From Thelonectria olida (lineage: Eukaryota; Ascomycota; Sordariomycetes; Hypocreales; Nectriaceae): DNA of 64,000 bases. The stretch is from NCBI GenBank assembly GCA_020736575.1, contig JAGPYM010000082.1, positions 1 to 64,000 on the forward strand. Direction: 5' to 3'. Under the pieces are notes generated by a model. That model saw nothing but the letters and a program-made list of their open reading frames with translations. It searched no databases and was not told where the DNA came from. Shown one piece after another: positions 17,471 through 59,680 of the stretch; the stretch's first letter is position 1; each line of letters opens with the position of its first letter. The translations under genes and the position numbers were made by a program.

Positions 17471-17527
17471 ACAAGCTGTTCGTCTCCCGCCCAACAGCAT
17501 ACTGATGATAGAAAAAGAGACATATAC

Positions 17528-39823: not shown

Positions 39824-41853
39824 ATGGTCTTCACTCCCCCAGCGTGGGTGTCTAGGCTACCCTTCGGTATGCTATACTGCCTTAGCCCAATCCACTCTAA
39901 ATGTTCATGATATCTCACACAATTTAGACCCTCCCGACTCCATCACCATTGCGGAATTTGTGAGCAATGAACTCTACGGCCGCTATCCCATAGCTCAAGC
40001 AAGAAACCCTTTTACCTGTGGTGTCTCTGGGAAGACTCGCACGACTCAAGAGGTGCTTCAACGCGAGGAGTACATGGCGCGTGCCATGGCTAAGCGGCTC
40101 GGCTACAGCCTCAATAAAGGCTCCGAATGGGATCGGGTAGTCGGTCTGTTTTCACTAAACACAGTCTGTGGCCTTGTTTCTGGTCTACTCTGAAGGGTCT
40201 CTAACTATCAGCTCCTAGATCGACTACATTCCCTTTACTCACGCCGTCCACCGTCTGTCTGGGATTGTCACTCCCGCAAGTGCCGAATACACAGCTCCAG
40301 AACTGGAGCATCAACTTAGAACGTCCGGCGCAAATGCTCTGTTCACCTGTCTACCTTTGCTCGAGACTGCCGTGACTGCCGCAAAAGCAGTGGGGATTGG
40401 CGAGGATCGCATCTTCGTTTTGCCAATGGCCGGATTCGACAAGAAAGTGCCATTTAAGACTATCGATGACTTAGTCGAGGAGGGGAAATCACTGTCGGAG
40501 CTTCCCGCGTTGAGCTGGACTCCCGGTCAAGGCGCGAAGCAAGTCGCGTATCTATGTTACTCTAGCGGTACTTCGGGTCCTCCAGTAAGTCACATACGCT
40601 TTTTAGTTATCATGACCTCTCAGACTTACCATTTTATAGAAAGCCGTCATGATTTCTCACCACAATGTTATTGCCAACGTCATGATGACACAATGGTACG
40701 ACGATGAAGGACGCAAGGAGAACAAGGTAAAGACACAAGTAATGCTTGGCCTGCTTCCATTTTCCCATATCTACGGGCTCGTGGTTTGCGGTCTATATGC
40801 TTTACAAAATGGCAACGAGCTGGTCATCCTCCCCAAATTCGAACTGAAGCCTTTTCTCTATGCTGTACAGAGGTTCCGCATCGAGCACGTCGCCATAGTG
40901 CCTCTCATCATTGTTCAAATGCTGGAAAACCTGGAACTATGCCGCACATATGATTTGAGCTCCGTTCGACTCTTGCTCAGCGGTGCAGCCCCGTTAGGCA
41001 GAGAAACTATGGAAGAGATTCTTAGAGTGTACCCGAAATGGCACCTGTGTCAAGGATATGGTATGCTAGAAATTTCCTTTTCCAACTATGTGATTTAATG
41101 TACTAACTACCATGGCTAGGCCTTACAGAGACATCGTCCGTTGTCACATCTACAAGCGAGCTAGACATTATGACCGGCTCATCTGGTTCCCTCATTCCTA
41201 TGCTTAGAGCAAAGATCATGGATGCCAAAGGCAATGAAGTGACTGAGTATGAGAAGCCGGGTGAGCTGCTCGTACACGGTCCAACGGTCGCCTTGGGCTA
41301 TTTGAACAATGCCGGTGCTACGCGCTCGACTTTCATTCATGATGAAGACGGTTACTGGACAAGGACCGGCGATGAAGTCCTCGTCCGCCTATCTCCAATG
41401 GGAAACGAGCACTTTTTTATCGTGGACCGAATCAAAGAGCTTATCAAAGTCAGGGTATTTTAATAATCAATTATGATCCCGATTCGATCTCTAGGAGCTA
41501 ATCGCTGACGCGTTATACAGGGACATCAGGTTGCCCCCGCGGAGCTTGAGTCACACCTCCTCGCCCACCCCCATGTGGCTGACTGCGCCGTGATCCAGGT
41601 ACCCGATGCCAGGGCCGGTGAAGTGCCCAAGGCGTATGTGAAAAAAGCGATTGAGGCAGCGAACGAGCCGGATAGTGAAGTGGTGGCAGCTATTCGCAAA
41701 CACGTCGAGGAGCACAAGGCTAGACACAAGTGGCTCAAGGGCGGTATTGAGTTCATTGACGTGATTCCGAAGAGCCCTAGTGGGAAGATACTGAGAAGGC
41801 TTTTAAGAGATCGAGAGAGGAAGGCAAGGAAAGTGAACGGAGCGAAATTGTAA
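39824..41853 (+). CDS. Acyl-/aryl-CoA ligase (phenylacetyl-CoA ligase / 4CL-like), peroxisomal
   Basis: Six exons (39,824-39,866; 39,928-40,163; 40,219-40,584; 40,640-41,060; 41,120-41,454; 41,521-41,853) give 577 residues. Introns are 55-66 bp; one has a perfect TACTAAC branch. It is an ANL-superfamily AMP-forming ligase activating a carboxylic acid with ATP and CoA. The P-loop is YSSGTSGPPK (207-216); QGYGLTET, YWTRTGDE, DRIKELIKVR and the catalytic Lys556 in PSGKILRR follow. It ends in AKL, a canonical PTS1 for import into peroxisomes. Overall it resembles Penicillium phenylacetyl-CoA ligases of penicillin biosynthesis; true substrate unknown. It lies inside the inverted arms; a RIP-damaged paralogue fragment lies at 26.8-27.1 kb. 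It appears fully intact. Confidence 0.9.
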
Positions 41854-42239
41854 ATTTCACGTGTGTGATTCAAGGACTTTGCAATGTGTTTGGTATGCAA
41901 CTTGTAAAGTAAGAATAGATTGATTCCTATCTATTTTCTCTAGTGTGGAACGGCCCCGCTCGTTCCGAGAACCAGGAGAGTTATCTAGTGACGCCGAGAA
42001 GCGTACTCTGTCTATTCTGTAGCTTGTGGAAGCTACCATATTTGAACCTCGTAACCTCCTCGACCCTTCCGTGCCCTGCTCTAGTCTGTTTATCCTTCTG
42101 CTTAAGAAATTCCCCCTGCCACTGGATTTTCTCTTCTTCCGTATCCGGGAAAGAATCCGTCCCGCGATATTATACATTCATGCAATGCATAAAAGAATAC
42201 CTTGGACTTGAATAAGTTTATCCGATATACTATCTATAC

Positions 42240-43179
42240 ATACCTCTTCATTACCTATCGAGCTCATATCCTAGTTCTGCTCGATATATCCTCTCCTCCA
42301 CCGTACTCAGATTCCCGGCTCTACAGTAAGGACAATATCGTCCGCTGCTCCGGGCCCAACATAATTCGCAAAAAGCATGCCCTTCGACGGATCAGCCCTA
42401 TTCAGATATTCACTGACCTGACACCTACCGCAAGATGTGAAAATGCTGATTGGTCTCTCTCCCCAACAAACTGGACATTCGCGCCAATGGTATTGTGTAA
42501 TCATATTTGGTTCTGAGCACGGTAGGCAATAAAGCTTTCATACTATTAGAAAAGATACTGCGAAGGTGGCCTAGTGCGTACCTTTCCCGAAGTTTCATGC
42601 CGTTGCGATACGTACTCTTTAGAGAGAAGTTCTGAACAATTACTGCACCGTGGCTCACCCTGATTGCCTTCGAGAGTCAAATCAATACATAGGATTTTAC
42701 GGCGCGCCCTCGGTGGCTTGTCGACTCTCTTCCGTTTTCGTGCTTCCTTCCGTGGCGCGTGCGCTATGAAGAGTCTTTGAGCCATTCGCTCCGGCGCCTG
42801 TATAGGACCTCTCCCCTCTTCATTAACGGACGAGACAGCAGGCGACATTAAGATTCGGGGGCCAGTGCTGTTATCATAACATTTGGCTTCATAGTCAGCA
42901 CCTACTAGGTCAATATAAGGAATGCCTTGTTCAGGAGCCGAGTACTGAGGGTGAAGCGGCATGTCGAGTGGAGGTCTAGGAGAAGAAATTGGCAGACTTT
43001 AGAGGGGGTTTATCCGCTTATATTCCTCCTACCTCACTCACCCTGCCCCAGGGTCTGGTTTCAGCTCTGATCATCTTCAATGGGACGGAGCGGCCATTGC
43101 ATCTCGCCATTATCGAACTTGAGGAGTAGCGTGGCCAGTCTGAGTAGGGCAAGTTCCACATCCAAGTTCAAGAAGTCAG
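42240..43179 (-). repeat. Right arm of the ~0.94-kb inverted duplication
   Basis: Reverse complement of 35,135-36,080, with differences concentrated at the two edges. Interior differences are few, for example GTTGTCTCGTCCATT versus GCTGTCTCGTCCGTT. The arm ends about 390 bases after the ligase stop codon and about 250 bases before the double-chromodomain pseudogene. Confidence 0.9.
42307..42962 (-). CDS. Small zinc-ribbon-like protein (right-arm copy)
   Basis: Same gene as in the left arm, on the minus strand: exons 42,659-42,962 and 42,307-42,512 with a 146-bp intron, 169 residues. It differs from the left copy at five residues (Val/Ala, Ile/Val, Ala/Glu, His/Tyr, Thr/Ala). The CPVC and CGRC pairs are kept in both. 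Retention of both reading frames after duplication suggests either recency or selection. Confidence 0.5.
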
Positions 43180-43428
43180 AATGGCTCAACCGCGTTACGC
43201 AATCGGAATCAACGACTAATCATGACACCAAAACCGAGTGGCAAACTGACTTTTTGCTCTTAATCACGCAACTTCGGAAACCTCTCCTCTCTTATCACTA
43301 CCCTAAGTTGCCCTCCTTTGCACGCATCAAATTTAAGTGCTTTCCGTCGCACTACCTTCAGCACTACTGCTTGCCTTGAGCCACACGATGGTTAGAAAGA
43401 GTATGTAGAGACCGCACACGATATAATA

Positions 43429-44156
43429 ATGCGACACGAGGCCACCAAGACTATCCATTCTTCAGCACCCGGGCGAGATGAAGCTTACTTTACGCCAAGC
43501 GATCACAATGATTCACCTAACCCCGAGAGAAAAAGGAAGCCGATGTCTCGGGGCGAGATGGAGGGCGGAAAGGACCGGCAGCGCCTGGAAGGCAAGAAAC
43601 ACAAAACGAAATCGGCCGGGCGAAAGAACACAAGCAAGCTAGAGAATCTAGAGGAGCCAACTAACGCAGAAAATGCGGCTAAACTGGCCGAGTCTGAGGA
43701 GAAGAGAAATGATATGGAAGACCCAAGATACGAAGTGGAAAAAATCGTTGGTCACCGCATCAAAAACGAACCGAAGTCGAGCTCATGGTGAAATGGACTG
43801 GTTGCTCCGAGCCTACGCTCGTCGATGAGCGTACCTTTTAATAAGACTGCCCACATGTGCTTTACCACTACCGGAAAACCAGTGGGACCCGCGAGAAAGC
43901 AACGGGAATAAATTCATGATTCCACGCCTTTCGGATCCTCGATTGGAGGGCCAAGGGCAAATTGCTATTTCTGGTGCAGTGGGTTGGATACCCGCCTGAG
44001 GATTCGACGTGGGAGCTTGCGTGGAGGGTTAAGGCTTTCGCGGAGGAGATGCACATCCGGCTGGGAGGGTTGCTTGGGAAAAGAAGAACCAGACATAGGC
44101 TTGAGGAATCTGCATGCGATAGCCGATCCTTCGGTAGATATGGCACTCGCAGGTAG
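43429..44156 (+). pseudogene. Double-chromodomain protein gene, decayed
   Basis: ATG 43,429 opens a 120-codon frame: a charged, Lys-rich N-terminus (RKRKPMSRGEMEGG), then YEVEKIVGHRIKNE, the start of a chromodomain. After a frameshift at about 43,777 the domain continues EVELMVKWTGCSEPTLVDE. Two adjacent TAA codons (about 43,839) and a TGA (about 43,917) follow, and the same frame goes on with HAFRILDWRAKGKLLFLVQW and VGYPPEDSTWELAWRVKAFA, a second chromodomain with Trp/Tyr cage positions. The last piece is open to about 44,156. Chromodomains bind methylated histone tails. One frameshift and three stops make it a pseudogene unless introns remove them, and I see no suitable splice sites. Confidence 0.7.
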
Positions 44157-44938
44157 TTGTTGGTGGCCCATGGTATTGTTTGCTATATTGTTTGCTACTA
44201 AACAATAGGATAGCATGGTCGCCTGTGAGAGACTGTTACGATTGCGCAAGTCCCATCGATACAGCCTGAGGCAATTTGCTCGATGGACTCCACTTTAATG
44301 GGCATCAGGCTCATTAGCACTGTGGGTATTCAAGCTGGTTTCCATGGAGGCTGTAGCAGCCTTAATAAAACTTACTTAAAGTATGAGTGTCGCGCCTGTC
44401 CTCATTCATTTTCTCACATTGGGGTCGTCTTGCCGTTCTGCCGGGGTTTACGGTCTGCCGTGGACAGATTTTATGCATAGGCTGTAACAATTGTCTAGTT
44501 ATAGTAAATTATAAGTTATTTAGTTAACATTTTAGATATGATTTGACTTAGTTATAGGATATTCAATACAGTGATAAATCACACTTGGCGAACGCCCCTC
44601 ATATTATTTTGAAAAAGTTCTGTATGTCATTTACATTCACGGATCGGAAATAATTGAAGATTGGCCACGGGGACCGCCTCGAGCTTTTGGAAGCAGCACC
44701 ACAAGAAGAAGCGTCATAGTACACGCACCAACTCTGCCTGTTGCTTTCGTCCTGCAGGAAGAAAGTTCAATCCAGGGGTGACCCAGCCGAGGGCACCATC
44801 CTTAGCCCTAGACTTATTCCTACTATTGGTTGCCACAATCACCAACTTGCATCGCCATACGCAACACCCTGGCCGCTCAGACTTGTGCTATTGGGACAGC
44901 TGGGGAATGGGCTGCTGGGCGATTTACTAGATTGAAAC
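44157..44938. other. No gene recognised
   Basis: 44,490-44,640 is a small AT-rich patch. Plus-strand frames at 44,661-45,036 are antisense or adjacent to the PLAC8 gene and show no motif. Confidence 0.45.
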
Positions 44939-45574
44939 CTAGGGGCCCATTGCCATTCTCTCCTGTTTACTATCATAGGCCCGGGCAATGGAGTTGCGAG
45001 CGAGACGAGCCTTCACTTCCCTCTCCTGCTGGATGAGAGCGCAGCAGCCGCACCAGTAACTGACGCAGCAGTCGTTCATTGCACTACCCTTGATGCCGAA
45101 CCTCTCACGGACCTCACCCCGTTTCATCATGGAATAGCTGTTGCAAAGAGGTTAGAGAACGTCTGACACTGAAATGCTATTTAGGATAACCTCGGACTCA
45201 CATCCAACCGCAACAGGTGAAGCACTGGATGCCGCAGAAGATTGCGCAACCACTGTTACAAGTTCTGGCATTTCGCATGGTCGGGTCTCGTATGCGGTCG
45301 GCGGTCTTCCCGAGCACTATGAATTGCGGTGTTAGCGATCTTGTCCGTGTGGCGCTTGACCGTTGTCTTGGCCACGGTCGTCTATCGCTCATGGCAGAGG
45401 GTGAATGGGGGCGGCAGGTCAATGCCGATTCTTAGTCCAGGCGGTCAACTCACAAACGCATGGCAAGAAGGTGCCGAGCAAGCAGATGTCGCAAGGACCA
45501 CAGCTGCAGAGGCTATTAGTCCATTCATGGTTCCGTGTTGGAGGAATGGGTACTATAGTGTCCGGTCGGGGCAT
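44939..45574 (-). CDS. PLAC8-family cysteine-rich protein
   Basis: Three exons (45,454-45,574; 45,202-45,316; 44,939-45,137) give 144 residues. Introns are 137 bp and 64 bp, both with GTGAGT donors. The product has the full PLAC8 order: CSCGPCDICLLGTFLPCVLL GKTADR (residues 23-48), CNSGCAIFCGIQCFTCCGW (60-78), then MMKRGEVRERFGIKGS, NDCCVSYWCGCCALIQQERE (100-119) and VKAR. PLAC8 proteins sit at membranes and are linked to metal transport, cell-size control and ion flux in plants and fungi. The fungal biochemical role is unsettled. All the Cys clusters are present and the gene appears intact. Confidence 0.85.
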
Positions 45575-46662
45575 TGTCACCGATTTGGTTGGTGAAAGGA
45601 AGGCCAAGCTTGAAGCGATTTTGGAATTCAAGGGAAGCCGGCGGACATGGCAGATGGAAGAGGCTGAAGAGATAGAGAATGTTACAGTACACCATTGGAA
45701 ATCGAAGAAATATCTTTGATCTTGATGCTAACGCAAGACCGCCAGATCCGGCCGTTCGGTTTGTGACAACCGACGAAGTCGTTGGCGGATTTGAGCTTGC
45801 GGTGGTCTGCTCTCGAAGCGGCCTTAGAAAGATAGCTGCCGAAGTCAGCTCTTCTGGTCCATTTCAACAACGTAAAGTGCGAGTTATACTGTATTATATG
45901 CCCCAGTTCTCTATACCAGTCTACGAGCAGTCGAGCACAAACCTTCATGAGTTGAGGAAAGACCCACCGATGAAGGTGCAACGCTGGGCCGAAGCGGGAG
46001 ATACGCCTTGGTCAGGGGCAACACGCATACTAATTTGGCACAGATGTGATCTTCGATTAGGCTGTTGTGTTTAGAATGCGAAAGTTACAGTCCTTTATGG
46101 GGGAGAAGGGGAGATGAACATAACAATGAAGGCCCGTAGACTGTGGGGTTGGGTGTATTTCATGTCTTTAGGGATAACTACGCTGAAGGCCAGCGGCTTC
46201 GCATAGTTCTCAATACTTGTACTAGCTCGTCTGGCTGTTTTGAAGAGTAGGATCGCAGTGTCAGCCACTGGAAGAGTTCACTTAAATCATCCATGTAGAC
46301 GGGCGTTGCTTCATCCATGTTCTCTTGGCGCCTTATATCAGCGACAGAGACTTCTATGTTTGACCAGGGTAGAGGAATTGATATATGCACGCAGGTTGAA
46401 ACAGGCTCGAGGGGGCAACGTCTGTTAGCAAGGGTTACAGATTAGATGAAGCCGTATGATGTTGCCAAGGGCCAGCCTATAAAGCTGAATGCAGAACATG
46501 CAGCAAATGGATAGAATGCCAGGCGTCGGCCTTGGTTGCTTTTCGCTGAAAATTGCCGTGGGGCTCTCTAGGTAGGACGACTCACTGAGTAGTTACATAT
46601 TAAGCCTTGGCTGTTCCTTCTTTTCCAGTTTCTTATGGGAGCGCATGTGCACCGTATAAGCA
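45575..46662. other. No gene recognised
   Basis: Contains the upstream regions of the PLAC8 gene (minus) and the following membrane-protein gene (plus). A 131-codon plus-strand frame at 45,679-46,074 has no motif and is opposed by an equally long antisense frame. It is left uncalled. Confidence 0.4.
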
Positions 46663-47343
46663 ATGACAGAGTTAGAGAATCAGAGAGCATTTTCCAAGAC
46701 CGGGTCTATATCTAGGGCCCAGAAAATGTATCTGGATATGGACGAGATCCATTGGGTTTACTCTACTGCCGCAGCATCATGTTCTTGGTTTCTCTTGGCC
46801 GGGTACCTTATTTCTCCGTCCACGTATACATCAATCAGCGAATCGGACACTTTGAACAATACGGGGAAAGTGGGGAAGTCGCTGATGAAAGCGGTGCAGA
46901 ACGTTCCCTTGATCGTTATTGCTTCTGTTTTCTGTTTCGTTGCCACGTCGGGTTTGGTATTTCTTTGGAGACGGAACCAGAATAATTATTTCTGGGTGAA
47001 GCGATACGTAGTCATGTAAGTACATGCCTACGAAGCTTATCAGCTGATGTGTAACAAAAAACATGAAAGCCCGGTCTTGACCAACTCCGCGATGGGCCTC
47101 ATCACGACGATTTTGAATATATACACTGTTCGGGAGGGTCAGTGGTCTATCACGGCGATCATCACAGGGTCCATCATAGGAGCTTGGCTTCTTTTTTCCC
47201 TCGCTGTGTTTGTCGCCTACGATGGTTTTCTTATCCCCGGACTCGAAAAAAACAGAAACGACCGGGCTCTTCAATCTAGCATTCATTTCTGCCTTCAGCT
47301 CTGCGAGCGGTTCCGTGATACCCTGAAGCGGCGTGGTTTTTGA
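46663..47343 (+). CDS. Four-pass membrane protein of unknown function
   Basis: Exons are 46,663-47,015 and 47,070-47,343, with a 54-bp intron (donor GTAAGT, branch CTGAT); 208 residues. Hydrophobic segments are YSTAAASCSWFLLAGYLI (about 33-50), PLIVIASVFCFVATSGLVFL (about 83-102), a third around SAMGLITTILNIY (about 122-136) and IITGSIIGAWLLFSLAVFV (about 147-165). A Lys/Arg-rich cytoplasmic tail follows. The pattern WVKRYVVIPVLTNSAMGLI recurs in a fungal family of small integral membrane proteins. No transport or catalytic motif is seen. The stop codon lies only 23 bases before the transposon terminus, so the element inserted in the gene's terminator region. Confidence 0.65.
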
Positions 47344-47366
47344 CTGAGAGTCTGCGATTCTACGTA

Positions 47367-49202
47367 ATGTGCATGATAAGCGAGTGGATCAGACTGAGTG
47401 GATCACTTGACTACACCCTGACTTCCTCTAACCAGCAAAATCAACCACAACACTCTAAATCGGCTCAAATCAATTCACTATATTCTTGAGACACTTCTAC
47501 TTCTATCTGACATCTTCTTGCATTACGTCCTGTCTTGCCACAGACGCCACATCGCCGTTGCTTTATTTCCGCTCTCTGCTAGCGACGACCATTTCCTCGA
47601 CTTTTATTTTCCAACTGCACATCTACCTCTTTCTGACCTTGCAAATCCTGTCTTTGGTCTAGAGTATAGGTTCCTTCTTCTCGAAGTCGATTTTCTTAAC
47701 ATGTTGACGTCAACTAAGGGTCTTGTTCTCCTGTTGAAGGATCTAGTTCTCTAGCCTCAATAAAGCGATCTGATGCATGATTCCTTGTGTCCCTTTGGCA
47801 AACTCGCCAACAGCATTAATAATAGGTGTCGGGGAGCTATTTTGATGAAGGGAGATCCGATTTAATAAATTCAGACTGTGAGCTCGCCTTAATCGGGTTG
47901 TTTGGCGTCTTCGAAACCCAGGGGGCGGTTAGCTCATTAACCCCTTCAACTGGCGTTGGCGTTCGTAGCTTCACATCTGGCCTAGCAATCACAATTTCTA
48001 GATCAATGGAATAAGGCATGCGCCCCGCGAGCCTCCTCGAATGTTCTTTCCCGTCATAGAATCGTAGAATGCGGCGTAAAACACAGGGAAGAAGTCGTCC
48101 TTAGTGATGTGGCTTGTACCGGTCCTCATGTTCTTCTCAATTTGTCGGCCGTACGCTTGCTTAAGCGAGCAAAAGCAGCCGACGTCAAGAGCTTGGAGCA
48201 TGCGAGATGAATGAGGAGGCATACAAAGAGTAATGATGTTATTCTCCTTGCAGAATAGCTCGAAGTCTGTCGAGTGGTGACTTTCATGGCCGTCTAGGAT
48301 AAGGAGGCGATATCCGCCTGTGTACGGGTTTGGCATGCTTGTCGAAATGCTGAATCTATTCTAGGCCTCTTGCGTCCGTAGCCTAGCTGTTATTAGACGT
48401 GGCGATTACCTAGTCTTGAGGTAGAGGGCTGTCCTTATATCAGGTTGATAGGTGATATTTACCTGAAACGATGATGAATGGAGGGACCGCCCGGCCTTGG
48501 GAATTGGCGCCCGGGATGACTGTAGCTCATTCTCTGTTGCTAGGCTGCACTAATTTTGTGCTTGAACGCCTATCTGAGCTTGTGACGACCATGCCTGATG
48601 AGATAACTCCCACCATAAAACCAGTCTCGTCGAAGTTGTAGATATCTAAGGCCGCAATGCCGCCTTCGAGATTGTGTTCCGCACGAGGGCAAACCAGCCA
48701 CGAATAGTGTCTGGATCTTCGCACAAGGCTTTCTTGTAGTCATATCGGCGAAATATATGCGCCTTGAGCTCTGGCTGTCGTTTGACGAAGTTGAAAGCCC
48801 AGCGCTTGCCGACCTTGGGCGCGTCGCGCTCCGCGAGCAGTCGATTGGCCATATCTTCCACCTCACGAAGCCAGGGAGAATATGATCGCGTATCCAGGTC
48901 AAGATGTATTGAGCAATGGTTGATTCTTCCAGATCGGTAAGATGCTGAGATTTAGGCGTGCAGTCGCGGCGTGAAGGTAATACCCGATCGCGTCGACGCT
49001 GTACAGTACTGAAGGGGACTTCATACACTGCAGCAGCACGTCGGATGCTAAAATTAGGGCCTCTTTCGAGAGCTTGAATAGCAAGCATAAATCGAACTTC
49101 TTTGCTCGGCGGTTCCAGGTTTGGCTATTGACATATCTCAATTTAAACGTTTGGGGTAAGTGGTCCTCTCACTCATCTGATCCACTCGCTTATCATGTAC
49201 GT
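47367..49202 (-). mobile_element. pogo/Fot1-like DNA transposon, 1,836 bp, with TIRs and TA duplication
   Basis: The element is bounded by terminal inverted repeats. The left end ATGTGCATGATAAGCGAGTG (47,367 on) matches the reverse complement of the right end (ACGTACATGATAAGCGAGTG inward from 49,202). The match continues through GATCAGA and TGAGTG to about 45 bases. TA dinucleotides flank it at 47,365-47,366 and 49,203-49,204, the Tc1/mariner-pogo target duplication. Size and transposase type fit the Fot1 clade common in ascomycetes. Transposase is on the minus strand and broken, so the element is non-autonomous now but might be mobilised in trans. Confidence 0.85.
47998..49141 (-). pseudogene. 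pogo/Fot1-type transposase, frameshifted
   Basis: Pieces in order on the minus strand are MRYVNSQTWNRRAKKF; MLAIQALERGPNFSIRRAAA with YEVPFSTVQRR (Psq-type helix-turn-helix); EDMANRLLAERDAPKVGKRW and FNFVKRQPELKAHIFRRYDY (CENP-B/Tc5-type helix-turn-helix); DIYNFDETGFMVGVISS (first catalytic Asp, DETGF); and YRLLILDGHESHHSTDFELF with IITLCMPPHSSRMLQALDVG (second Asp, DGH, of the DDE_1 domain). At least three frameshifts and stops separate them. The family cuts and pastes at TA sites. The coding sequence probably starts near 49,141 and ends at about 47,990. Confidence 0.8.
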
Positions 49203-49204
49203 TA

Positions 49205-49902
49205 TACAGGAACTCATCAGACGGAGATGGATGGTGGTTCGTCACACGCTCTAGATGGGTCTGGACAGGTGTTCATGATGGTTGAGAAGTTCTTCACTCA
49301 TATGCTAATCTCGTTTGGAGAAAGAGCGAAGACTCATTGTATAATGCTGGACTTCCTGTGATGGATGAATGGGAAAAGGTTTGTCTCTCATAGAACATCG
49401 CGTTGTCGACGGGGTTGGGGAAGACTCAGCAAGCATTCACGTTTGATATGAGAATTCCACACTTTATTTTCGCTTAACGGTCCGCCACATACTTGCAACT
49501 GGAACCTGACTAGACACTCGAGCATTTTAGAGAAATGCCCATGTGTTTTAATACCACTGTTGTAGGGACATAGAACCTGATGCGGTAGCTAGGTTGAGGC
49601 TCTGCGCCGACCAGTTACTGGTGTTTTTCTTTACGTGACTAGTGGTACAGATCACAGAAGAAGAGATGGTCCGCTTAAGACGATGTGCCACCTGTACTTC
49701 AATCCCTTCCTTGGCCCATTCGACTGTTGACGTCCTTCAGCAGATCTGTCAGACAGGTATCGCTCACACGATTAATAAAGGGGTCACTTCAGGCGAGGCG
49801 AAGCGATTCAACACACGAAGCAGGCATAAGCTAGAATGGACCGTGGTCTGGATTGCAAAGCGCTTGTATTACTGCTTCGGCTTGGCCTGCAGCACCTGAC
49901 CG
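49205..49902. other. No gene recognised
   Basis: Between the transposon and the 3' end of the CenH3 gene. A plus-strand frame at 49,642-49,899 lacks an ATG and motifs. It holds the CenH3 terminator region. Confidence 0.45.
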
Positions 49903-50442
49903 CTACCCGAGTCCTCCCCAGATACCGCGAATTCTCCTAGCAAGGTGCACGTCTTTCTGCATAATAGTGACTCGTTTGGCATGCAACGCACAAAGATTGA
50001 TATCCTCGAATAAGTGCACCAGATACGCTTCGGTCGCTTCCTGCACGGCTTGGATGGCCTGAGTTTGCCAATGTATTCCCTCTCCCGGCGGACGACATGC
50101 GAGAGAAATTTCGCGAACCTGGACTCTTCGTTAGCCCGGATTCAGACAAATTTTGTGGAGAAGGTGATTCCAGACAAGGCGGGAGAATGGCATTTTGAGA
50201 AGCAGTAGATCAGTGCTCTTTTGATGGCGCCTGATCTCCATCAGAGCCCTCGTACCACGGCGGTAGCGCCGCCTTGGTCGGATAGGCACCGGATCCCCCG
50301 CTGAAGGTGTCATAGTCGGTCAGTGTGGGTCGAATAACCCTTGACAGAGCAGGAGCTACTCACCTTGGACGTCAAGTAGATGGGATTGGGAGGGGCGACT
50401 TGTGGTCACAGGGCCTGAAGGTGGATGCTGTCCTTTAGCCAT
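49903..50442 (-). CDS. Centromeric histone H3 variant (CenH3 / CENP-A)
   Basis: Three exons (50,364-50,442; 50,176-50,300; 49,903-50,118) give 139 residues. Introns are 63 bp (GTGAGT donor, CTGAC branch) and 57 bp (GTCTGG donor, CTAAC branch). After a short 26-residue divergent tail the protein runs [80 protein letters not shown] and [20 protein letters not shown], ending [11 protein letters not shown]: a complete H3 histone fold. Loop 1 ([13 protein letters not shown]) is about three residues longer than in canonical H3, and Phe of H3 is Trp (W85), both CenH3 hallmarks. CenH3 replaces H3 in centromeric nucleosomes and seeds the kinetochore. The N-tail lacks the ARTKQTARKS sequence of H3. No stop or frameshift is present. 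It could be the organism's only CenH3 or an accessory copy. Confidence 0.9.
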
Positions 50443-51902
50443 CGAGTTGTGAGTAGCTGAAGAGGAAGCGGAGGCAGGAGACTCCGGGCGAATGCATGAA
50501 ACGATGTTAGAATTAGACCAAGTTAGATCCAGGCGTCACATGAGAATGAAAGTGGATGGATTAAATGAGGTGGGACAGGGTTGATATAGATGGCGATGGA
50601 GTCATTCTGACATCTCTCGATCTACACGACGCTAGTTGGTCGTCCGTCCATAAAGAGCATAGCCATTTCCATTTTTGGGGCCCTTTACCTGTGCGAGGGC
50701 TGTGTGCATCGGTAGTTGGACGCTCTGGAATGGTCCCACCCTCATTCAACTTGTGAAAAAGATTTGCCAGCGTTTCCCTGTGCACCTAACTAAGCTGCAT
50801 GAGGATGCACCGAACTTCCATGAGAGGTCTTTGTTCTAGAATTTGATCCTGTGTTTTGCCTGTATGACTAAACTATAACTATAGAATTGGCTAGTAGTAA
50901 CAGAAAAATTAAATCGACGGCACGAACTCACCTTCGGATTTAGACGAGAAATATAAACATCGTATCACACATACCAATCATATTACAGTACTACAGGAAC
51001 CAGCTTCACCGTTCACGTAGGCTCATCAAATAGCCATTCTAAAAGTTCTACGCACTGCCAACTCAAACACCATCATAAACGCCATCCTGAGTGAGAAGCT
51101 TGAGACATTCTACGGTATTAACGCCATCCGTGGCTGCTTGCGACAGCTTCCCGCCAGGAATAGCAGTGAGGGCCCTCTGTGCAGGCGAGATGTGAGGGTG
51201 AAGTAGCAAGAACAGAGACTTCGCGGTGCAATGATAAGATCGATGTATCGCCTAATTTCTTTATTGATTTAGGGCCGAGTTACCATAAATATCCCGTTGT
51301 TCACTGCCACAATTCTGTCATTTGACTGGTGGATGACTATTCCAGCTGCCAACTTACATACCAATAGGATCCGACACGTGAAGAAGAAAATAGGATCAAA
51401 ATTGTTCCGTCAAGACCGTATCTACCTTTTTTGACATGTTTTCCAAGAAGGGAATGTATGTAGTTAAGCTATATAAGTTATGCCTAAATAAAAACAAAAG
51501 TAAGATTAACTATCGTGACTACTAATCAGTATCATGACCAACAATGCAAACGTAAGGTAGCGTGGCATGTCTGGCCGAGCCATGCTCGATGAGCCTCAGC
51601 CAACTTGCGGTAGAAGAAGAGGCTAGAGGTAAGACATGTTTACTATGGTACCGACCAACAAGAGTGATATAGATGCCTCTACAAGCTTATTCTGCTGACC
51701 CAGGAGCATGATTTGTGCTTTATCTGCGAACCAAGGATGATGCCGAGAGAATGAAAGGAAACTCTGGATGATGAATGACTTTCCCCCAAGCGGTCAAGTG
51801 ATTCGACGTAAAGCACACCAAAGGTTTGACATCGGCACGGCGGACCGCGTTCAGTGCAGAAGCCATCGCAGTAATAGCAAGTCAGGTGACACACTCAGGG
51901 AG
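50443..51902. other. No gene recognised
   Basis: Includes the CenH3 promoter region. 50,820-51,560 is mildly AT-rich with no frame above about 70 codons; no TATA box was convincing. Confidence 0.45.
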
Positions 51903-52538
51903 CTACAATATGGAGCATCTGAGAAGAATGTGAAGGAGGGGATACAAAAGTACCAGACTATTCCAGTGAGAAGCCTGGCCTGCCGAGGAGCTCGCGGCTA
52001 GAGAAGCCGTGGCGGCGGCTGTAGGAGACCACGGCGTCTGAGAGAGACTCTCGGTGGCTGTGGTGGAGATATTGGCAAACTTTGCGGTTGCTAGAGTTGA
52101 TGTTTGCCAAACCACCAAAGACGTGGTGGGGGGTGGGCTTATGCCTGTCAGTCCTGGGGTCACAAGTGTGATTTGGGTGGGAGACGACTCGGGGGTGATG
52201 ATTGATGTAGGCTGGACCTCCAAGTATTGGGTGAGTTGAGGACAAGAGCATTGTGGAGTAGTGAGAAACGTTGGAGGCAGGGCCGAACTTTCATCCGTGA
52301 CACTGCGGAGCTGATTGGTAAAAGCGGCATTGGTAGACGTGTCGGTGACCAATGTTTCATGCTCCGACGCACACATTGTGGTTGTATGGCACGAGAATAC
52401 TCGCATGTCCAAGGCCCGCCTTGACTTTTGTACTATTTCCAGTGTCCCAATCCGGCGACTATTGAACTTGGGGCCATAATGAACTGTGGAAGGCGATTTT
52501 GAATGAGGCGAGTGATAAGAACAAGGAAGTAATGGCAT
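51903..52538 (-). CDS. Ser/Thr-rich, probably GPI-anchored surface protein
   Basis: The unspliced frame from ATG 52,538 gives 211 residues. The body is Ser/Thr/Pro-rich (TSIITPESSPTQITLVTPGL, STTATESLSQTPWSPTAAAT), typical of O-glycosylated wall proteins. It ends with a small-residue segment ASSSAGQASHW and a hydrophobic tail NSLVLLYPLLHILL, like a GPI signal. The N-terminus MPLLPCSYHSP is a poor signal peptide. An alternative start at 52,554 (MQVPEYAITSLFLSLASFKI) gives a good one if a 49-bp intron joins it to the same frame, which the GT..AG boundaries allow. The neighbour is the divergent membrane-protein gene at 52,632. Confidence 0.45.
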   Translation of the reverse strand: MPLLPCSYHSPHSKSPSTVHYGPKFNSRRIGTLEIVQKSRRALDMRVFSCHTTTMCASEHETLVTDTSTNAAFTNQLRSVTDESSALPPTFLTTPQCSCPQLTQYLEVQPTSIITPESSPTQITLVTPGLTGISPPPTTSLVVWQTSTLATAKFANISTTATESLSQTPWSPTAAATASLAASSSAGQASHWNSLVLLYPLLHILLRCSIL

Positions 52539-52631
52539 ATTCTGGCACTTGCATTGGCTTTTAGAAAGCGTTTGCGTTATTTAAAATCCAGGGACGAGGC
52601 GCATCATTCTTGTTTCCCCAATTCAGTGAAC

Positions 52632-53559
52632 ATGAAACGGTTTCTACACGCCATCGCGTTATCCGCACGACAAGTAATTACACGGCGAAGAGCGCTCGTG
52701 GTCATTGTATGTCACATCATTTTGACAACGTCGATCCTTATTTATACTATCAAAACGCTCTCAGGCCATAAGTTAGAGAAGGAGGGCATCTTCAAGGTTT
52801 CGGTATGCACGGCGGATCTTTCTTACCGCCGAGAGGCGTAGCTGACTATTTGTCTAGTTTGGGCAGCAGATTTTTGGCCGAGGTTTTTCGAATCCCGTTG
52901 AGAGCATAAAGGCTCAGGCCACAGATGCCATCGCCAAAGCAAGCCAAGTTGTTACTGGTGCCACCGACGCCGTGGGAAAAGCGACGTCGGTAGCCGCCGC
53001 GCAAGCTACCAAAGTGGAGAATGACGTAAACAGCATCGTCCACAGTGCCATTGGAGCCGTCGAGACTCTACTGGGTGGACAGGTGCCAAAGGGGTGCAGT
53101 GTCGGTACTCAGGACGGCTGCGTCATATTCGAGAGCCGCTCAAAATGCGTACAAGTCCCGATCAAAAAGGACAGCATCTTTGCAAAAATGGCCAGTCTAA
53201 ACCCATCAATCGAGTCTCTTGGTAGTCTCCTCCAGCACATCCCACCTCTGCAGATGTTCCTCTATATTGGCTTGGCCTTGGTTTTTGTTTCATCCCTCAT
53301 CTCAATTATTGGTGCTCTGATGGATTTTCACCTCCCTTTTCAAGGTCTCGTCAACTTCATACTGAGTATGCTGGGGTTCATTTCACTGCTCGTGTTTGCG
53401 GCGGTGGTCCTCGCTGTGTATTCGTGGGGACTCCAACTGGAAAAATTGACCGAAGGGACTCTTCACAAAGGGGGTGCGTACGCTGCATCTATAACTATGG
53501 CGGTTCTGAGCTTCCTCCATCTAGCAGTTGTGACAGCAGAAGTTGTGATTGGCTACTAG
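52632..53559 (+). CDS. Four-pass membrane protein, SUR7/PalI-like topology
   Basis: Exons are 52,632-52,802 and 52,858-53,559, with a 55-bp intron (donor GTATGC, branch CTGAC); 290 residues. Segment 1 is ALVVIVCHIILTTSILIYTI (about 21-40). A long extracytoplasmic stretch follows with Ala/Thr-rich helical repeats (ATDAIAKASQ, ATDAVGKATS) and Cys residues in GCSVGTQDGC and SKC. Three more passes come next (MFLYIGLALVFVSSLISIIG, FISLLVFAAVVLAVYSWGL, ITMAVLSFLHLAVVTAEVVI). One N-terminal pass, a large loop and three clustered C-terminal passes is the layout of SUR7/PalI family eisosome and pH-sensing proteins. Sequence evidence beyond topology is weak. Confidence 0.6.
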
Positions 53560-54406
53560 GCGTTTCTTTGATGCTCTGGTACAAGTTGTAGGGTAGATCA
53601 CTCAACGAAGAACAACGTCGCAACAATATCGCGGCGCTAGTGGCCATGGTAACAAGGGCTTGTATAACTTTGCATTACTATGTGCTATGTGGTCTTGTAG
53701 AGTAAGCTTTGTTCTCTTTTTTTCCTGGCTTAGCTTTAGCTCTTGAGAGGTTAGGTCGGCCATGCTGCTGTCCGTTATAACAATCATTGCCCTTAGAAGG
53801 CAGAGTACGGACAGACGCCCCTTGAGCGCACGCAAATTGATACAATGATGCAAATCCCTATTCGGCATGGCGACCTCAGCTGTTGTATATTGAGTTCTTC
53901 AGTCGGACGAGGCCTACCTTTTCCCGGCACAAAGTTGGCCTCGTCTGCCGTTGCTCTGCCCCGACTTGCGTTGAAATGGTGACACACAGTGGCCCTATTC
54001 AATAATTTGGCATCTCAGATGGCAAATAAGTTCTATATTGATAAATATCATATGTATTCATGTATTTAAGGTAACGCGAATCGTCACGCGCCATGTGGCC
54101 ATGAAATGTGTGACAGAACTGCATGCAATCTCCTACAATCGGCACATGCCTCGGTGCCCATCAATTTGTTGCAGTACCCATCACCCTCACAACCTCAAGA
54201 ATCAGCGATACTAGCAACCTGCTCTCAATGTGCGCTAAAAGCAGGCATGTTGGATGGAGTTCCCCGCCTCACCTTAAGGCAGCAGCCCATCCGCTTTTGT
54301 ACCGTTCAAGCATGTTTGGTGAAACTGGTGTGCCAACTGGTCTATGCTCCGAGGCCGTATCCACCTGGATGCTGTTGTTTATCATCAGGTTACGACTCAA
54401 GTGTGC
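53560..54406. other. No gene recognised
   Basis: Convergent 3' flanks of the membrane-protein gene and the patatin gene. A minus-strand frame of 88 codons (53,602-53,868) has no motif. Confidence 0.45.
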
Positions 54407-57400
54407 TTATGGAAGCCTTCGGCGCTTGACATCTAAACGCATGTATTCGCTAGACGTTTTCCTCTTCCGATGGTCGTCGGTCCCGAACCACGCGTCTAGC
54501 CCTTGACTCTGGACCAGCCATTCGAGAGTAAAAGGAGATCCACTAATGTGGCGGCAGTCATCGTCGCTTCCTACCAATGTGATTTCAAAGCTGTCTTTTA
54601 CGTTGGGGACTACGAATCGCACTCGTTGGCTGAAGTTCTCGCCAATGTCTTCGGTTGTGAAGCCATATTTTTGGTTGCCTACCCGAAGCGCCGCTGATGT
54701 TTCGCGCAGCTGACGCATGAATTCTTGGTACTGGGCCGTCCCCGCACGCAGCCTACACATGACATGGCCCACACAAGTGAAACAACCATTTGCGAACTGA
54801 GGTGGATGTGAAGCATCTAGCTCGAAGAAGAAAAGCTCTGCCCGAAGGCATCGGGCTAAGCAGTGCAGAGTTGGTGAACCTTTTATGGCTTTGTGAGCTG
54901 CTTGACCCACTGCATCCATCTGATCCACCGCATCTAGATGAGGTTCCTTCCCCCCGAAATCAACATCGAACCTGAAGTATTGCGTCCGACTGCCGAGTAT
55001 GCGGTGTCCCAGCAGCTGTTTCCAGGCAACCTGCGAATTGGCCTGCCTCCAAAGAGCTCGCGAGAGCCTGAACGGAAACTTGTCACCCCACCAACTGTGG
55101 TTTCCTGATGCTTCGTCATCGTCGGAGGAAGAGGATCCTGTGCCAAGTGAGACAATCATGCTCGGTTCTGGAGCATTCGGATACAAAGCGGCGACCTCGC
55201 GCAATGCGATTGATGCGGGGTTGTTAAAGGCAAGCCCACCGTCTTGAAAAGCCCCCAAATCACCTATGCGTCTCGATTTGAAATAGCTGCGTCATCATCA
55301 GTCTAAAATACCTTGCATTGCGCCTGGCAAATCGCGACTTACAATGGAGCCGCTGTAGCGCAGCGAAGACTGGGTAAGGCGGCGGCGTTAGCGTGTCCAC
55401 TAGTCCCTGGGTAGGAGCAACTCACATTTCCCACAGCCTGACTCGACCATGACCTACCTCAGGAGGTAAGATGTCGTAATCTGTCTGAGAGTTAGCAGTG
55501 GAGGTGAGAGTAACGGTCTACGCGTCTTCGGTCACCTCGGTAAGTTGGTCGGTCTCCAACCCCATTGTAGTTGGTGGCGATGACGGCTTTGCCATTATGC
55601 GTATTTGTCAGTGTCACACCAACATGTGTGCCCATCTCGGTAGAAGCTGAACAATTCGTCAAAGTTCTGTCTGGCCCGCAAGTTTCCTGAAGAAGCCTTT
55701 CCAACCCGTCTGCGGAGTATTTACCGTCGACAATCATGATGTAGACGAAATAGAGGAAGCGGGCCACCTCTGATATTACGGGAACCTTGGAGAGCATTCG
55801 CAGAGCAATGGGGACTGGGCACTGAAAGGCTCGCTCAGCGAACGATTTGAAGTAGCACATGCAATCTTCAACGCTCCAGCCTAGGACATCAAGGCTGATC
55901 ACGCTCAGGGCACCTTAGGACTTTGCTTTAGTATCTGTTATTGAGAGAGCGAGTATGACTGAAGTTACCGGAACTAGTACCAAATTTGACATCAAAATGC
56001 CGCTGGACTTGGTAGTTTGGGATGCCAATCTCATCTTCTAATGCTTTCAGAAATGCGATTGGGGCGGACCCACGTATGCCGCCACCATCTATGCTCAATA
56101 CTCGGATCCTAGTAGTATCTGGGATTAGTCTAATCAAGAGATTTTGTATCGATGCTCCGCAAATCTGGCAAGCATCTAGCTGCACCACCCAGGGATCGGA
56201 ATCGGGATCGTTACCGCCCTGGCGATGAAATGATTTTACACATGTTTGACAGATGGCGTGGCCGCAATGCAGAGTGTACTGAGGCCTGCGCCTGATGCAG
56301 CACAAGCAAGTCTCATCTGACGAAGCTCTCGATAGAAAACTATGAGATTGTGAGAGCTGTAGTCGATGCCAATCCACTACTGACGACCCCGATGCCTGAA
56401 CTTCGGCATAGTGTGTGGCCATGCTGTCCTTTATCAACTCTACCATCTCCGACGGGAGCAGTGAGCCTCTGTTGATGTGAGTAAGATGACGGCTTGCCTG
56501 CCAGCAAGCATTGATATACAACACGTTGAAAACGTCGCATGGATTGAAAGCTGTTCCACCCAAAGTCAGTCGTGTCAACGAAGCGTTTCCCTCACGTACA
56601 ATGCATCCCGGGTGGGTAATGATCAAGTAAAAGGCTCGAAGCAATCAAGGGGATGGCAATTTGTTTTAGAGTCGCCAAGGATCGAAACTGATTCAAGAAG
56701 TTGACTAAATGAAGGGATAAGTCTGGAGCAGTGCCTCGATCCAACCGAGATATCTTGATGAAATCGAACGGCATGGCTGAGGCCTGTGCCGCGGATGTCG
56801 CGCCGTGATGAAGGAACGCGGCCAAGTGACGAATTGAGAAGAGGTATCCGGATCGCTTCCGTGTCTCCCTACTGGCTTCCAAGGATCTCAACACTTCGTG
56901 CCGCAGTACATCCCAGCAGCGCGTCCGGCTGCGTTTCTTATGTCTACCATTTTTAGACGGCCGGCTTGGAACCGCGAGGATGGATACGCTTTGGAAAACA
57001 TCTTCCAGTGTTGATTTATCTATGGAGCTTTTGAATTCTCGTAAACATGTTCGCGCATGTTTCTCGTCCTCTTTGTTTACGATGAAGAAGAGCCGTGGGC
57101 GAAGGGAAGCCGTAGATGATCGACCCAAGTCCAGCCAGGACGCCAAGCGCCTGATTGATGCTTCGATGCCTCCGACATCTGCCACGAAAAGGCAAACGAC
57201 ATCTGCAAAAGGAAAAAGAGACTTATGAAAGAGTTTATCGCTAAACTCGGAGGCACTCTTAGGATTTACCCTGGCCGTAAACCGTTCTCCAGCGACATTG
57301 TGACATGGGGGGTTCCTGCACGCAAAAGGTAGTCTTCCATGGCGGGGGATATCTGCATCGGCTATTAGGAAGCGTATCGCTTCGCGGCCCTTGAATGATG

Positions 57401-57659
57401 AGGCAAAGAGATGAACTTCGCCATTGCCTCGTTGGCCGAGTGTTCCGTTCTGTATCCTTAGTGTGGTGAACGCTGCTCGTTTAGATCGATTACCAATGAG
57501 CATCAACAAACCACCACGATCACTGTCGGGGTTTTGAAAGTCTTCCAGAAGACGCTGAGGTCGATCTGTGATTTCGAGTCCTAGTTCGGACTGTGCTTTC
57601 CAAAGTCTAAGCCAACTTGTATGTCTGCACCGACCCATGACTGTGTGGCATAAGAGCAT
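54407..57659 (-). CDS. RING-type zinc finger plus patatin-like phospholipase, 993 residues
   Basis: Six exons (56,600-57,659; 55,969-56,550; 55,536-55,913; 55,426-55,480; 55,343-55,369; 54,407-55,286) total 2,982 bases in frame; introns are 49-56 bp. Residues 1-430 are an N-terminal region known only from fungal patatin proteins (FADVVCLFVADVGGIEASIR). A RING-like finger follows at about 435-485 (CLCCIRRRPQYTLHCGHAIC, QTCVKSF, DACQICG). The patatin domain has the oxyanion hole DGGGIRG (508-514), nucleophile Ser547 in GTSSG and Asp716 in FQDGG, so the Ser-Asp dyad is complete. Patatins hydrolyse phospholipid acyl chains; in fungi and bacteria several are effectors of incompatibility or defence. 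The C-terminal 230 residues are unassigned, ending in a basic RKRKTSSEY..VKRRR tail. Five well-formed introns and an intact dyad argue for a working gene. Confidence 0.85.
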
Positions 57660-58546
57660 GTAGCGTGGGAGGTATCTTCGTATAAATACATACTTTCATG
57701 CTGCTACCTATTGCGTACAAAACCGGCTGTTGGGTTTTGATTATAGAACATCTTATATAATATGTACAGTCAATTTGGGTCATGGAAGACTCAGGCTTGC
57801 GTTCGCTTGGCCATAATTGGTTTTGCGTCATACTTGGCTATCTCATAAAACACAAGTCGATTGGCGCTGAATGGGTACAGTAGCTCTAAGCCGTTGTTTC
57901 TCCCTGACATCCTCTCCATCAAGGACCGAATTCCTTGATACTCATGAGTTTCGCAATGGACGGAACTGTCAGTATTAAAGACTTTTTCATATGATACAAG
58001 TCAAATACATAGAGTATCGAGACAACACTCTTCAAGCAATACACGTTTGGGCTGAAGACTGGCTGGACATCACTGAAAGTTTAGGCTGGGCACTTTTAAC
58101 CCCACTGGATACACGAATGACTATTGCTGACATCTCCCATGATAAGCTAGGCTGGAATGAAGTCATACAAATCCAAGAGGCAAGGCTTTATTTGTTCTCA
58201 TCTTGGGATACTAATTATTTAATAACTTTCTCCTGTGACGGCACGACGGCGTCTTACTAACCAGTGATTCTTAAATTTCAAAATACCGGCTGCGCTACTT
58301 GCATTGGCAGAAGGATCTCTAAAACTAACTTATATGTGTTATGTATCCATCCGGAAAATTACTTACTGCTTACATTATCACGCGAGTCCTGGTACTCTTC
58401 TTGCGCTACGGGTCGGATTCACTATGGCAACATGCAATGGGCGGGAGAAAGCATCCACTAGCTGTTCGGCATGTGCGAACTCTAGTGGTGGCAAGGCAAA
58501 GAAAAATTGAGGATCGGTTCTATGGTCAACACTATCAATCTCCTTC
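57660..58546. other. Intergenic, one possible short ORF
   Basis: A plus-strand ATG frame of 89 codons at 57,991-58,260 (MIQVKYIEYRDNTLQAIHVW) has coding-like composition but no recognised family. It may be a gene or a relic. The rest shows nothing beyond the patatin gene's promoter region. Confidence 0.35.
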
Positions 58547-59527
58547 TCACCGAACTACCACCTGTCGACTGGAACTTCGACCTGGGTCTTCTATTCGGTG
58601 TTTCTGTAGCTGATCCCTTGAAAATCGCCTTTGATTTGCGAACTTGCCGTATGGGCTCTGACTGTGTTCATCTCTATAATCCATATTTCTTCGCGCTTTG
58701 AACGCTACCTTCTCTTCTTCACTAAGGGCAAAGGCCTTCTTCAGCCAATGTAGTGCGCTCTTTGGTTTTCGTGTCCACCTTAGCTTTTGTTTTAGAAGAC
58801 AAGAAGTAAGTTCTGACGAAGTTTCAGACGAGGTATCAAAGTAGCTCCTCATTGCATCATCTTTACTCGGCGGACACAAGAAGCTATTTGAACTGTTGAG
58901 TGCTGTCCGGTTGCCTTGAGAATGAGCACCGTTATGCTGGAATGGTCCCCATGTATGAGCGTTTCCAAACATATCGGAGGCTGATTCACGGGGATACTGA
59001 GATCCCGCCTCATTCAGCGACGGTAAAGATCTTACGTGGTATGCGAAAAGGGAGCTGTTATGGGAGCTATAGCCAGAGCTAGTTACAACCCTTTTGTTGT
59101 TTGGAGATCGAGATCTAGAGAGGTGTGAATTTGATTCGCCGATTCGGGAGACATGGCCCAGTTCTATGGGATGGGTGTATCGTTGGAACGGGGTGCTTAG
59201 CTGTCTCTCGGGCTTTGCTTTTTTCTCTACGACTGAGCCGGTCTGGTGTAGCGCCGAAAAAGACGAGGACTCCAATTCCGGGCGGTCTTGCGATTGTGGA
59301 AGTTGAGACCAGCTATCTAGCTCGTCTTGAGCGGCAGTTAGAGCACTCGAGCTCTCGATGCGTTCACCAACGTACTCACGGTTGTCACCGAAGATGTCGA
59401 GAAGGTCGTCGATATGAAACCTCAAGGATGTGCGAATGGAGTGAAGCCTCGGGCGAGCAGGTGAGCGAGGAGGGATTGGAGGGGCTAGATTCACGCTTTG
59501 CGCCATGTCAGGATTGGCACCGTCCAT
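58547..59527 (-). CDS. Intrinsically disordered protein of unknown function
   Basis: The first ATG in the frame is at 59,527, giving 326 residues; the frame is open 107 codons further upstream without an ATG. The N-terminus is Pro/Arg-rich (LAPPIPPRSPARPRLHSIRT), then SLRFHIDDLLDIFGDNREYV, a possible helix. A long Ser/Asn-rich disordered stretch follows, and a basic C-terminal segment LRWTRKPKSALHWLKKAFAL with EEEKVAFKARR. This layout suits a regulatory or scaffold protein. No catalytic domain is visible and I do not recognise the family. Long opposite-strand frames at 58,900-59,601 are considered antisense shadows. Confidence 0.5.
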   Translation of the reverse strand: MDGANPDMAQSVNLAPPIPPRSPARPRLHSIRTSLRFHIDDLLDIFGDNREYVGERIESSSALTAAQDELDSWSQLPQSQDRPELESSSFSALHQTGSVVEKKAKPERQLSTPFQRYTHPIELGHVSRIGESNSHLSRSRSPNNKRVVTSSGYSSHNSSLFAYHVRSLPSLNEAGSQYPRESASDMFGNAHTWGPFQHNGAHSQGNRTALNSSNSFLCPPSKDDAMRSYFDTSSETSSELTSCLLKQKLRWTRKPKSALHWLKKAFALSEEEKVAFKARRNMDYRDEHSQSPYGKFANQRRFSRDQLQKHRIEDPGRSSSRQVVVR

Positions 59528-59680
59528 GTCTCTATATGGACGAGAAAAACTTAACCCAGTCAATCGTGCTGTGTGAAGAAACTTCTGTTTGGGTGCGTTG
59601 AGAAATGAGGCAAGAGCAACCCTTAAAAGACAAGCATTATCACGCGCCGACTTGTGACACGAGTGGCCTAAATCATACGG

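What the first reader, a model, noticed from the sequence alone, without database searches (positions are those of the whole stretch)
49903..50442. Complete, divergent CenH3 (CENP-A) gene in a transposon-rich region
Three short exons assemble into a full histone fold with the longer loop 1 and Trp that mark CenH3, followed by [11 protein letters not shown]. The N-terminal tail is only about 26 residues and unlike other tails. Fungi normally carry a single, conserved CenH3 gene. Finding it next to a pogo element and decayed genes raises the possibility of a second, accessory CenH3 that could mark supernumerary or selfish chromosomes.
Basis: partly seen in the sequence, partly recalled or inferred. 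Interest (0 to 1): 0.88.

Follow-up and report, generated by a model that had tools for sequence, protein, structure and literature searches.

The report
Extra centromere histone on accessory contigs
Besides its normal centromere-histone gene, the fungus Thelonectria olida carries two further intact, diverged copies on two small matching contigs that likely belong to accessory chromosomes, where they are predicted to help those extra chromosomes keep their own centromeres.

Summary
The gene call holds: three minus-strand exons (50364-50442, 50176-50300, 49903-50118) give an intact 139-residue CenH3. The genome (Thelonectria olida by protein matches, 52.5 Mb) has three CenH3 genes: a canonical one on a 2.25-Mb contig, the window gene (C147, 84 kb), and a 94%-identical twin (C127, 127 kb). 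C147 and C127 are collinear over 66 kb, 93% identical where aligned; both end in AT-rich sequence with RIP-like ratios, and they share a repeat and HP1-like genes mostly with other sub-Mb contigs. Between the twins the histone fold is constrained (2 amino-acid, 9 silent changes; dN/dS 0.07); the tail is not. The twins form a clade with a Mariannaea sp. PMI_226 protein (99/98), apart from T. olida's own CenH3; a T. olida-only duplication is rejected (AU p 0.021). Scm3 and CENP-C gave one match each. An HP1-like gene lies about 19 kb away in both copies. Best reading: an old CenH3 carried by accessory chromosomes, likely loaded by host machinery. Expression, centromere binding, dispensability and chromosome identity are untested. 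B-chromosome CENH3 copies are known in plants; my searches showed none in a fungus.

The parts
50364..50442 (-). CenH3 exon 1 (ATG, tail)
   Evidence: tail codons 1-26 differ from the C127 twin by 5 nonsynonymous and 1 synonymous change
50176..50300 (-). CenH3 exon 2 (alpha-N and alpha-1 part)
   Evidence: Pfam histone scan E 1.7e-5 at 50173-50280
49903..50118 (-). CenH3 exon 3 (long loop 1, alpha-2, alpha-3, [11 protein letters not shown], stop)
   Evidence: Pfam histone scan E 3.6e-18; 6 synonymous and 1 nonsynonymous change against the twin; frame ranks 7th of 524 for constraint
17213..64000 (.). Part of the segment collinear (inverted) with C127:104480-12839; it runs on to C147:83542
   Evidence: 59,033 of 66,330 C147 positions covered, 93.1% of aligned bases identical
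1..11900 (.). AT-rich block (17% GC) with RIP-type ratios, possible centromeric or pericentromeric DNA (inferred)
29520..30542 (-). HP1-like gene: chromodomain frame (30341-30442) and two chromoshadow frames (29864-30337, 29520-29948); also in C127 near 79.6-80.6 kb
   Evidence: Chromo E 9e-8, Chromo_shadow E 1.4e-6 and 8.6e-7; C127 chromoshadow matches, chromodomain letters; splicing inferred
43396..44153 (+). Chromodomain-protein relic: one open frame in C127:57033-58088, split over frames here
   Evidence: C127 frame: Chromo E 4.3e-12, Chromo_shadow E 2.1e-5; frames compared
48573..49124 (-). Pogo-type transposase fragment
   Evidence: HTH_psq E 2.7e-5; 68% DNA identity of 47714-49009 with C127:27790-26491, where a frame has DDE_1 E 1.3e-31
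52858..53556 (+). Neighbouring orphan gene frame, weakly SUR7-like
   Evidence: SUR7 19.8 bits, below the cut-off of 29.6; the only database match is T. olida itself
12418..12565 (.). Repeat fragment, probably LTR-derived (pairs about 5.5 kb apart on C82, C108, C118)
   Evidence: 23 other matches on 13 contigs, all 697,519 bp or shorter (lengths)

Best explanation
The window encodes an intact CenH3, one of three in this genome, whose histone fold is conserved between twin copies and which likely works as a centromeric histone carried by an accessory chromosome. Shown: three CenH3 genes; the window gene and its twin lie in a 66-kb collinear pair of small contigs that end in AT-rich sequence; the fold is constrained between the twins; the pair forms a clade with a Mariannaea protein; one Scm3 and one CENP-C match in the genome. 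Inferred: the protein is made, the host's Scm3 loads it, its conserved WGGLG end is bound by the host's CENP-C, and it supplements or replaces core CenH3 on the accessory chromosome's own AT-rich centromere and so helps that chromosome persist. The HP1-like gene of the same segment would help package the flanking heterochromatin.
For: Three CenH3 genes. Fold codons 27-139: 2 nonsynonymous, 9 synonymous changes, dN/dS 0.067, binomial p 1e-4. Coding DNA differs at 17 of 420 bases against 178 of 1,975 in the flanking 2 kb. Accessory clade 99/98; AU rejects grouping with core T. olida CenH3, p 0.021. Four residues shared by window, twin and Mariannaea and absent from 30 other CenH3s. Collinear twin contigs with AT-rich ends. 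Repeat and HP1-like copies mostly on sub-Mb contigs. Scm3 and CENP-C one match each.
Against: No expression, localisation or strain-polymorphism data. Chromosome identity is unproven: no telomere on either contig, and contig lengths were read for only 68 of 165. The intron-2 donor is weak. Other frames in the segment are constrained too, so CenH3 is not singled out. The sub-Mb contigs also hold core genes (H3 on C90, Pre-SET on C86). Z. tritici centromeres are not in its AT-rich blocks (passage), so the AT blocks need not be centromeres.
Confidence: 0.55

Rival explanations
1. The two contigs are lineage-specific parts of core chromosomes (pericentromere or subtelomere) that carry an old CenH3 paralogue; no extra chromosome is involved.
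For: Small contigs can be broken core chromosomes; no telomeres or strain data; core-type genes also sit on sub-Mb contigs.
Against: The 12.4-kb repeat is on 13 other contigs, none among the 20 largest read (34.05 of 52.53 Mb); the segment exists as two 7%-diverged copies while the core region is single.
Confidence: 0.2
2. P0004 is simply the ordinary, only CenH3 of Mariannaea, and T. olida received a segment with that gene by horizontal transfer; there is no special accessory CenH3 clade.
For: P0004 is the only Mariannaea CenH3 in either listing.
Against: P0004 has 77.9% fold identity to core T. olida CenH3, whereas eight other Nectriaceae have 89-96%, odd for an essential core gene; the database is clustered at 90%, so a canonical Mariannaea copy may be hidden.
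Confidence: 0.2
3. The protein is a neofunctionalised H3 variant with a role away from centromeres.
For: Changes at otherwise fixed sites, such as R84 to H, S87 to T and Q126 to H; long stem branch, 0.32.
Against: Long loop 1, Trp85 and the WGGLG end are kept; the tail-loose, fold-tight pattern is usual for CenH3 (recalled).
Confidence: 0.12
4. Unexpressed relic.
For: Transposon-rich surroundings; a nearby chromodomain frame is broken on C147; weak intron-2 donor.
Against: Both copies intact at about 7% divergence with fold dN/dS 0.067.
Confidence: 0.07
5. Second haplotype, hybrid or contaminant genome.
For: Two 93%-identical versions of the segment.
Against: 9 kb around core CenH3 has no second copy; Scm3, CENP-C, Pre-SET and the canonical H3 are found once.
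Confidence: 0.03

Closest known systems
B-chromosome-encoded CENH3 of sorghum, maize and Aegilops speltoides (PMC12849586, passages)
   Same: An extra CENH3 gene carried on a supernumerary chromosome beside the core gene
   Different: The sorghum B copy is 98.7% identical to the core protein and arose within its lineage; here the fold is about 76% identical to the core, forms a separate clade shared with another genus, and the host is a fungus
Metarhizium robertsii accessory chromosome with two putative histones and histone-modifying enzymes (meeting abstract in PMC10687773)
   Same: A fungal accessory chromosome of the same order (Hypocreales, recalled) encoding histones
   Different: The abstract does not say which histones and does not mention CenH3 or CENP-A; I have not seen the full paper
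Accessory-chromosome-encoded Kmt6b/c of Fusarium oxysporum (PMC12774646, abstract)
   Same: An accessory chromosome supplies chromatin machinery that acts in the host
   Different: A histone methyltransferase, not a centromeric histone
Canonical Nectriaceae CenH3 (core T. olida P0025, Ilyonectria, Fusarium)
   Same: Fold, loop 1, Trp, C-terminal end, and the same two intron positions as in the core gene
   Different: About 76% fold identity against 89-96% among eight canonical Nectriaceae proteins compared with core T. olida; residues 44R, 63M, 87T, 126H

Membership tests
CenH3 / CENP-A | Histone H3-type fold by sequence | tested here: met
   Pfam Histone E 3.9e-35 for the C127 twin, 121 bits against a cut-off of 26.4; window exons
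CenH3 / CENP-A | Closer to CenH3 than to H3 | tested here: met
   Cnp1 140.9 bits, best H3 124.2 (60 of 179 shown); H3 was not put in the tree
CenH3 / CENP-A | Loop 1 longer than in H3 | tested here: met
   28 against 25 residues over the same stretch
CenH3 / CENP-A | Divergent N-terminal tail | tested here: met
   Alignment A1; 5 nonsynonymous, 1 synonymous change in the tail
CenH3 / CENP-A | Hydrophobic C-terminal end that binds CENP-C | tested here: inconclusive
   IWGGLG is kept in sequence; binding not testable
CenH3 / CENP-A | Sits at centromeres | not testable with these tools
   Needs ChIP-seq or imaging
CenH3 / CENP-A | Predicted histone fold in three dimensions | tested here: inconclusive
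   AlphaFold2 monomer poor, pTM 0.29; Foldseek gave no match at E 0.001 or below
Fungal accessory chromosome | Small, repeat-rich, with content distinct from the core | tested here: inconclusive
   84- and 127-kb contigs; repeat on 13 other contigs, none of the 20 largest read
Fungal accessory chromosome | Presence/absence between strains, dispensable | not testable with these tools
   One genome only
Fungal accessory chromosome | Own telomeres and centromere | tested here: inconclusive
   (TTAGGG)4 found on C18 only; AT-rich blocks present, centromere function unknown
HP1 (neighbour gene) | Chromodomain plus chromoshadow domain | tested here: met
   Both found in adjacent frames in the order seen in the C111 gene; the splicing that joins them is inferred

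The most novel reading that the evidence does not exclude
Accessory chromosomes of Nectriaceae carry their own centromere-identity kit, a distinct CenH3 clade plus HP1 paralogues, which lets them keep a centromere in hosts of different species and so makes them portable between genera.
Probability: 0.25. Interest if true: 0.93.

Novelty: new variant of a known kind. Interest (0 to 1): 0.76.

Why it matters
How accessory chromosomes persist, and sometimes cross species, is an open question. A chromosome that supplies its own centromeric histone would be a direct mechanism, and the question 'whose CenH3 sits on whose centromere' could be answered by ChIP-seq and by removing the gene pair. It would also break the rule of thumb that a fungal genome has a single CenH3 gene.

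Tried and rejected
Second haplotype or contaminant: disfavoured by the single-copy core region and single Scm3, CENP-C, Pre-SET and canonical H3.

Recent duplication of T. olida's own CenH3: rejected, AU p 0.021 (the group was chosen after seeing the first tree, which weakens the test). Origin within Nectriaceae: not rejected, p 0.095.

RIP acting on the twin segments: no CpA excess. Share of C sites that differ: CpA 0.094, CpC 0.100, CpG 0.122, CpT 0.074.

Linkage with the Mariannaea contig through the neighbouring gene: its only match in 2,887 candidates was T. olida itself, so no answer.

Structure: AlphaFold2 of the C127 twin was poor (pLDDT 67, pTM 0.29) and Foldseek gave 36 matches, none at E 0.001 or below. 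Counted as uninformative; lone H3-type chains without H4 often model badly (recalled).

Telomere pattern: 16 exact matches, all on C18, so no help in defining chromosomes.

Literature: ten searches. Those aimed at accessory or duplicated CenH3 (9, 10, 12, 38, 53, 71) showed no fungal accessory-chromosome CenH3 in their listings, which were capped. Most subscription papers, and the Metarhizium paper itself, are not held.

Full report
OBSERVATION. The minus-strand exons 50364-50442, 50176-50300 and 49903-50118 give an intact 139-residue protein with GT...AG introns of 63 and 57 bp. Its best solved relatives are S. pombe Cnp1 chains (140.9 bits), ahead of the best H3 (124.2, 60 of 179 matches shown). 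Loop 1 is three residues longer than in H3 and Trp85 is invariant in 32 aligned CenH3s. The gene call is right. A short tail is not diagnostic: the core T. olida CenH3 is only 130 aa.

ORGANISM AND COPY NUMBER. The best database protein is the C127 twin, named Thelonectria olida, on a contig of 127,078 bases; the canonical T. olida gene is on one of 2,254,386 bases. Both lengths equal those of G000's C127 and C122, so I take G000 to be that assembly. The Pfam histone scan gave 15 matches; the CenH3-type ones form three genes: C122 (core), C127 and C147 (window). I read the letters of the eight matches that came with loci; the other matches are second exons of the same genes or weaker matches that I did not read. 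One H3-like frame on C93 has an in-frame stop. DNA search with the window gene gave C127 at 94% over the whole gene and C122 at 72% over part of exon 3.

SETTING. C147:17213-83542 is collinear, inverted, with C127:104480-12839: 59,033 of 66,330 C147 positions are covered and 93.1% of aligned bases agree. Both contigs end on the same side in AT-rich sequence: C147 1-11.9 kb at 17% GC with TpA/ApT 1.22 and (CpA+TpG)/(ApC+GpT) 0.63; C127 from about 114 kb, with 1.15 and 0.75. A passage of PMC4589918 says that long AT-rich regions hold the centromeres in N. crassa and several fusaria but not in Z. tritici, so a centromeric role here is inference. The geometry fits two related chromosomes or the two arms of an old isochromosome; I cannot tell. 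A repeat fragment at 12.4 kb has 23 other matches on 13 contigs, all 697,519 bp or shorter and none among the 20 largest contigs read, which hold 34.05 of 52.53 Mb; lengths were read for 68 of 165 contigs. Nine kb around core CenH3 have no second copy, so the genome does not look diploid. For scale, a table in PMC11433043 gives 41.60 Mb for T. discophora and 42.25 Mb for Mariannaea sp. PMI 226 (passages).

SELECTION. Between the twins the coding sequence differs at 17 of 420 bases, against 178 of 1,975 in the flanking 2 kb. In codons 27-139 there are 2 nonsynonymous and 9 synonymous changes (dN/dS 0.067, binomial p 1e-4); in the tail 5 and 1. Exon 3, downstream of the weak intron-2 donor, has 1 and 6, so both copies most likely still splice. 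Its frame ranks 7th of 524 overlapping frames tested, p values uncorrected. Other constrained frames include a fungal-rhodopsin one and several unnamed ones, so CenH3 is not the only live gene there.

ANCESTRY. In a tree of the fold (49 rows: 48 proteins chosen from the two searches plus the window; bootstrap not fully settled) window, twin and Mariannaea P0004 group at 99/98, while core T. olida sits with Ilyonectria and Dactylonectria at 94/78, which is not starred. On 45 rows (four gappy or over-long rows dropped) the AU test rejects the pair with core T. olida (p 0.021) but not with the Nectriaceae rows (p 0.095). R44, M63, T87 and H126 are shared by the three and absent from 30 other CenH3s; P0001 has 14 and P0004 10 fold residues seen in none of the 30, against 0-6 private residues per canonical row. 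Whether Mariannaea also has a canonical CenH3 could not be tested: none is named, but only 120 rows are listed and the database is clustered at 90%.

OTHER CHROMATIN GENES. Scm3, CENP-C and Pre-SET give one match each, on C1, C1 and C86, so a working accessory CenH3 would use host loading and kinetochore parts. The window carries an HP1-like gene about 19 kb from CenH3 (one chromodomain and two chromoshadow frames), also present on C127. Chromoshadow matches total 11 on 9 contigs: C111 (2.27 Mb, likely the core HP1) and eight contigs of 627 kb or less. A second chromodomain frame, open on C127, is split over frames on C147.

MECHANISM. Most likely this is an old accessory-borne CenH3, loaded by host Scm3, bound by host CENP-C, and helping the accessory chromosome hold its own centromere. 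Shown: gene, copies, clade, selection, neighbours. Inferred: expression, loading, site and benefit.

KNOWN KINDS. B-chromosome CENH3 copies are described in sorghum, maize and Ae. speltoides; the sorghum one is 98.7% like the core (passages of PMC12849586). A Metarhizium accessory chromosome carries two putative histones (abstract in PMC10687773), and F. oxysporum has working accessory Kmt6 copies (abstract of PMC12774646). A fungal accessory CenH3 did not appear in the listings.

Noticed in passing
L055-L058; C108:219079, C110:181099, C81:621493, C98:332909: Four HP1-like copies with equal chromoshadow scores lie 3.7-5.6 kb from the ends of four contigs of 187-627 kb, which suggests a subtelomeric gene family.
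   Followed up: partly
window 17213-64000 against C127: Two 93%-identical segments over 66 kb show no RIP-type CpA bias, although the AT-rich blocks beside them have RIP-type ratios: the pair may not have passed a RIP-active cross together.
   Followed up: partly
C127:95298-100628; window about 20354-20358: A Copia-type element (RVT_2, 1777-aa frame) sits in C127 and is missing at the matching place of C147, where the flanks overlap by 5 bases like a target-site duplication.
   Followed up: no
window 1-11900: Parts of the AT-rich block are 87-88% like sequence on C73, C108, C119, C52 and C50 (10.7-223 kb contigs); matches on the larger C144 and C111 are 66-72% (39 of 220 candidates scored).
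   Followed up: partly
L008 (C93:301289-301489): A divergent H3-like frame with an in-frame TAG and no CenH3-type loop: a decayed or odd H3 variant.
   Followed up: no
window 54410-57695: Frames with weak RING and patatin-phospholipase matches, constrained between the twins; a NACHT frame lies on C127 at 84495-86237.
   Followed up: no
window 14495-15451 and 16587-18406: An FtsJ-type methyltransferase frame, and stretches 73-79% like core contigs C133 and C1.
   Followed up: no
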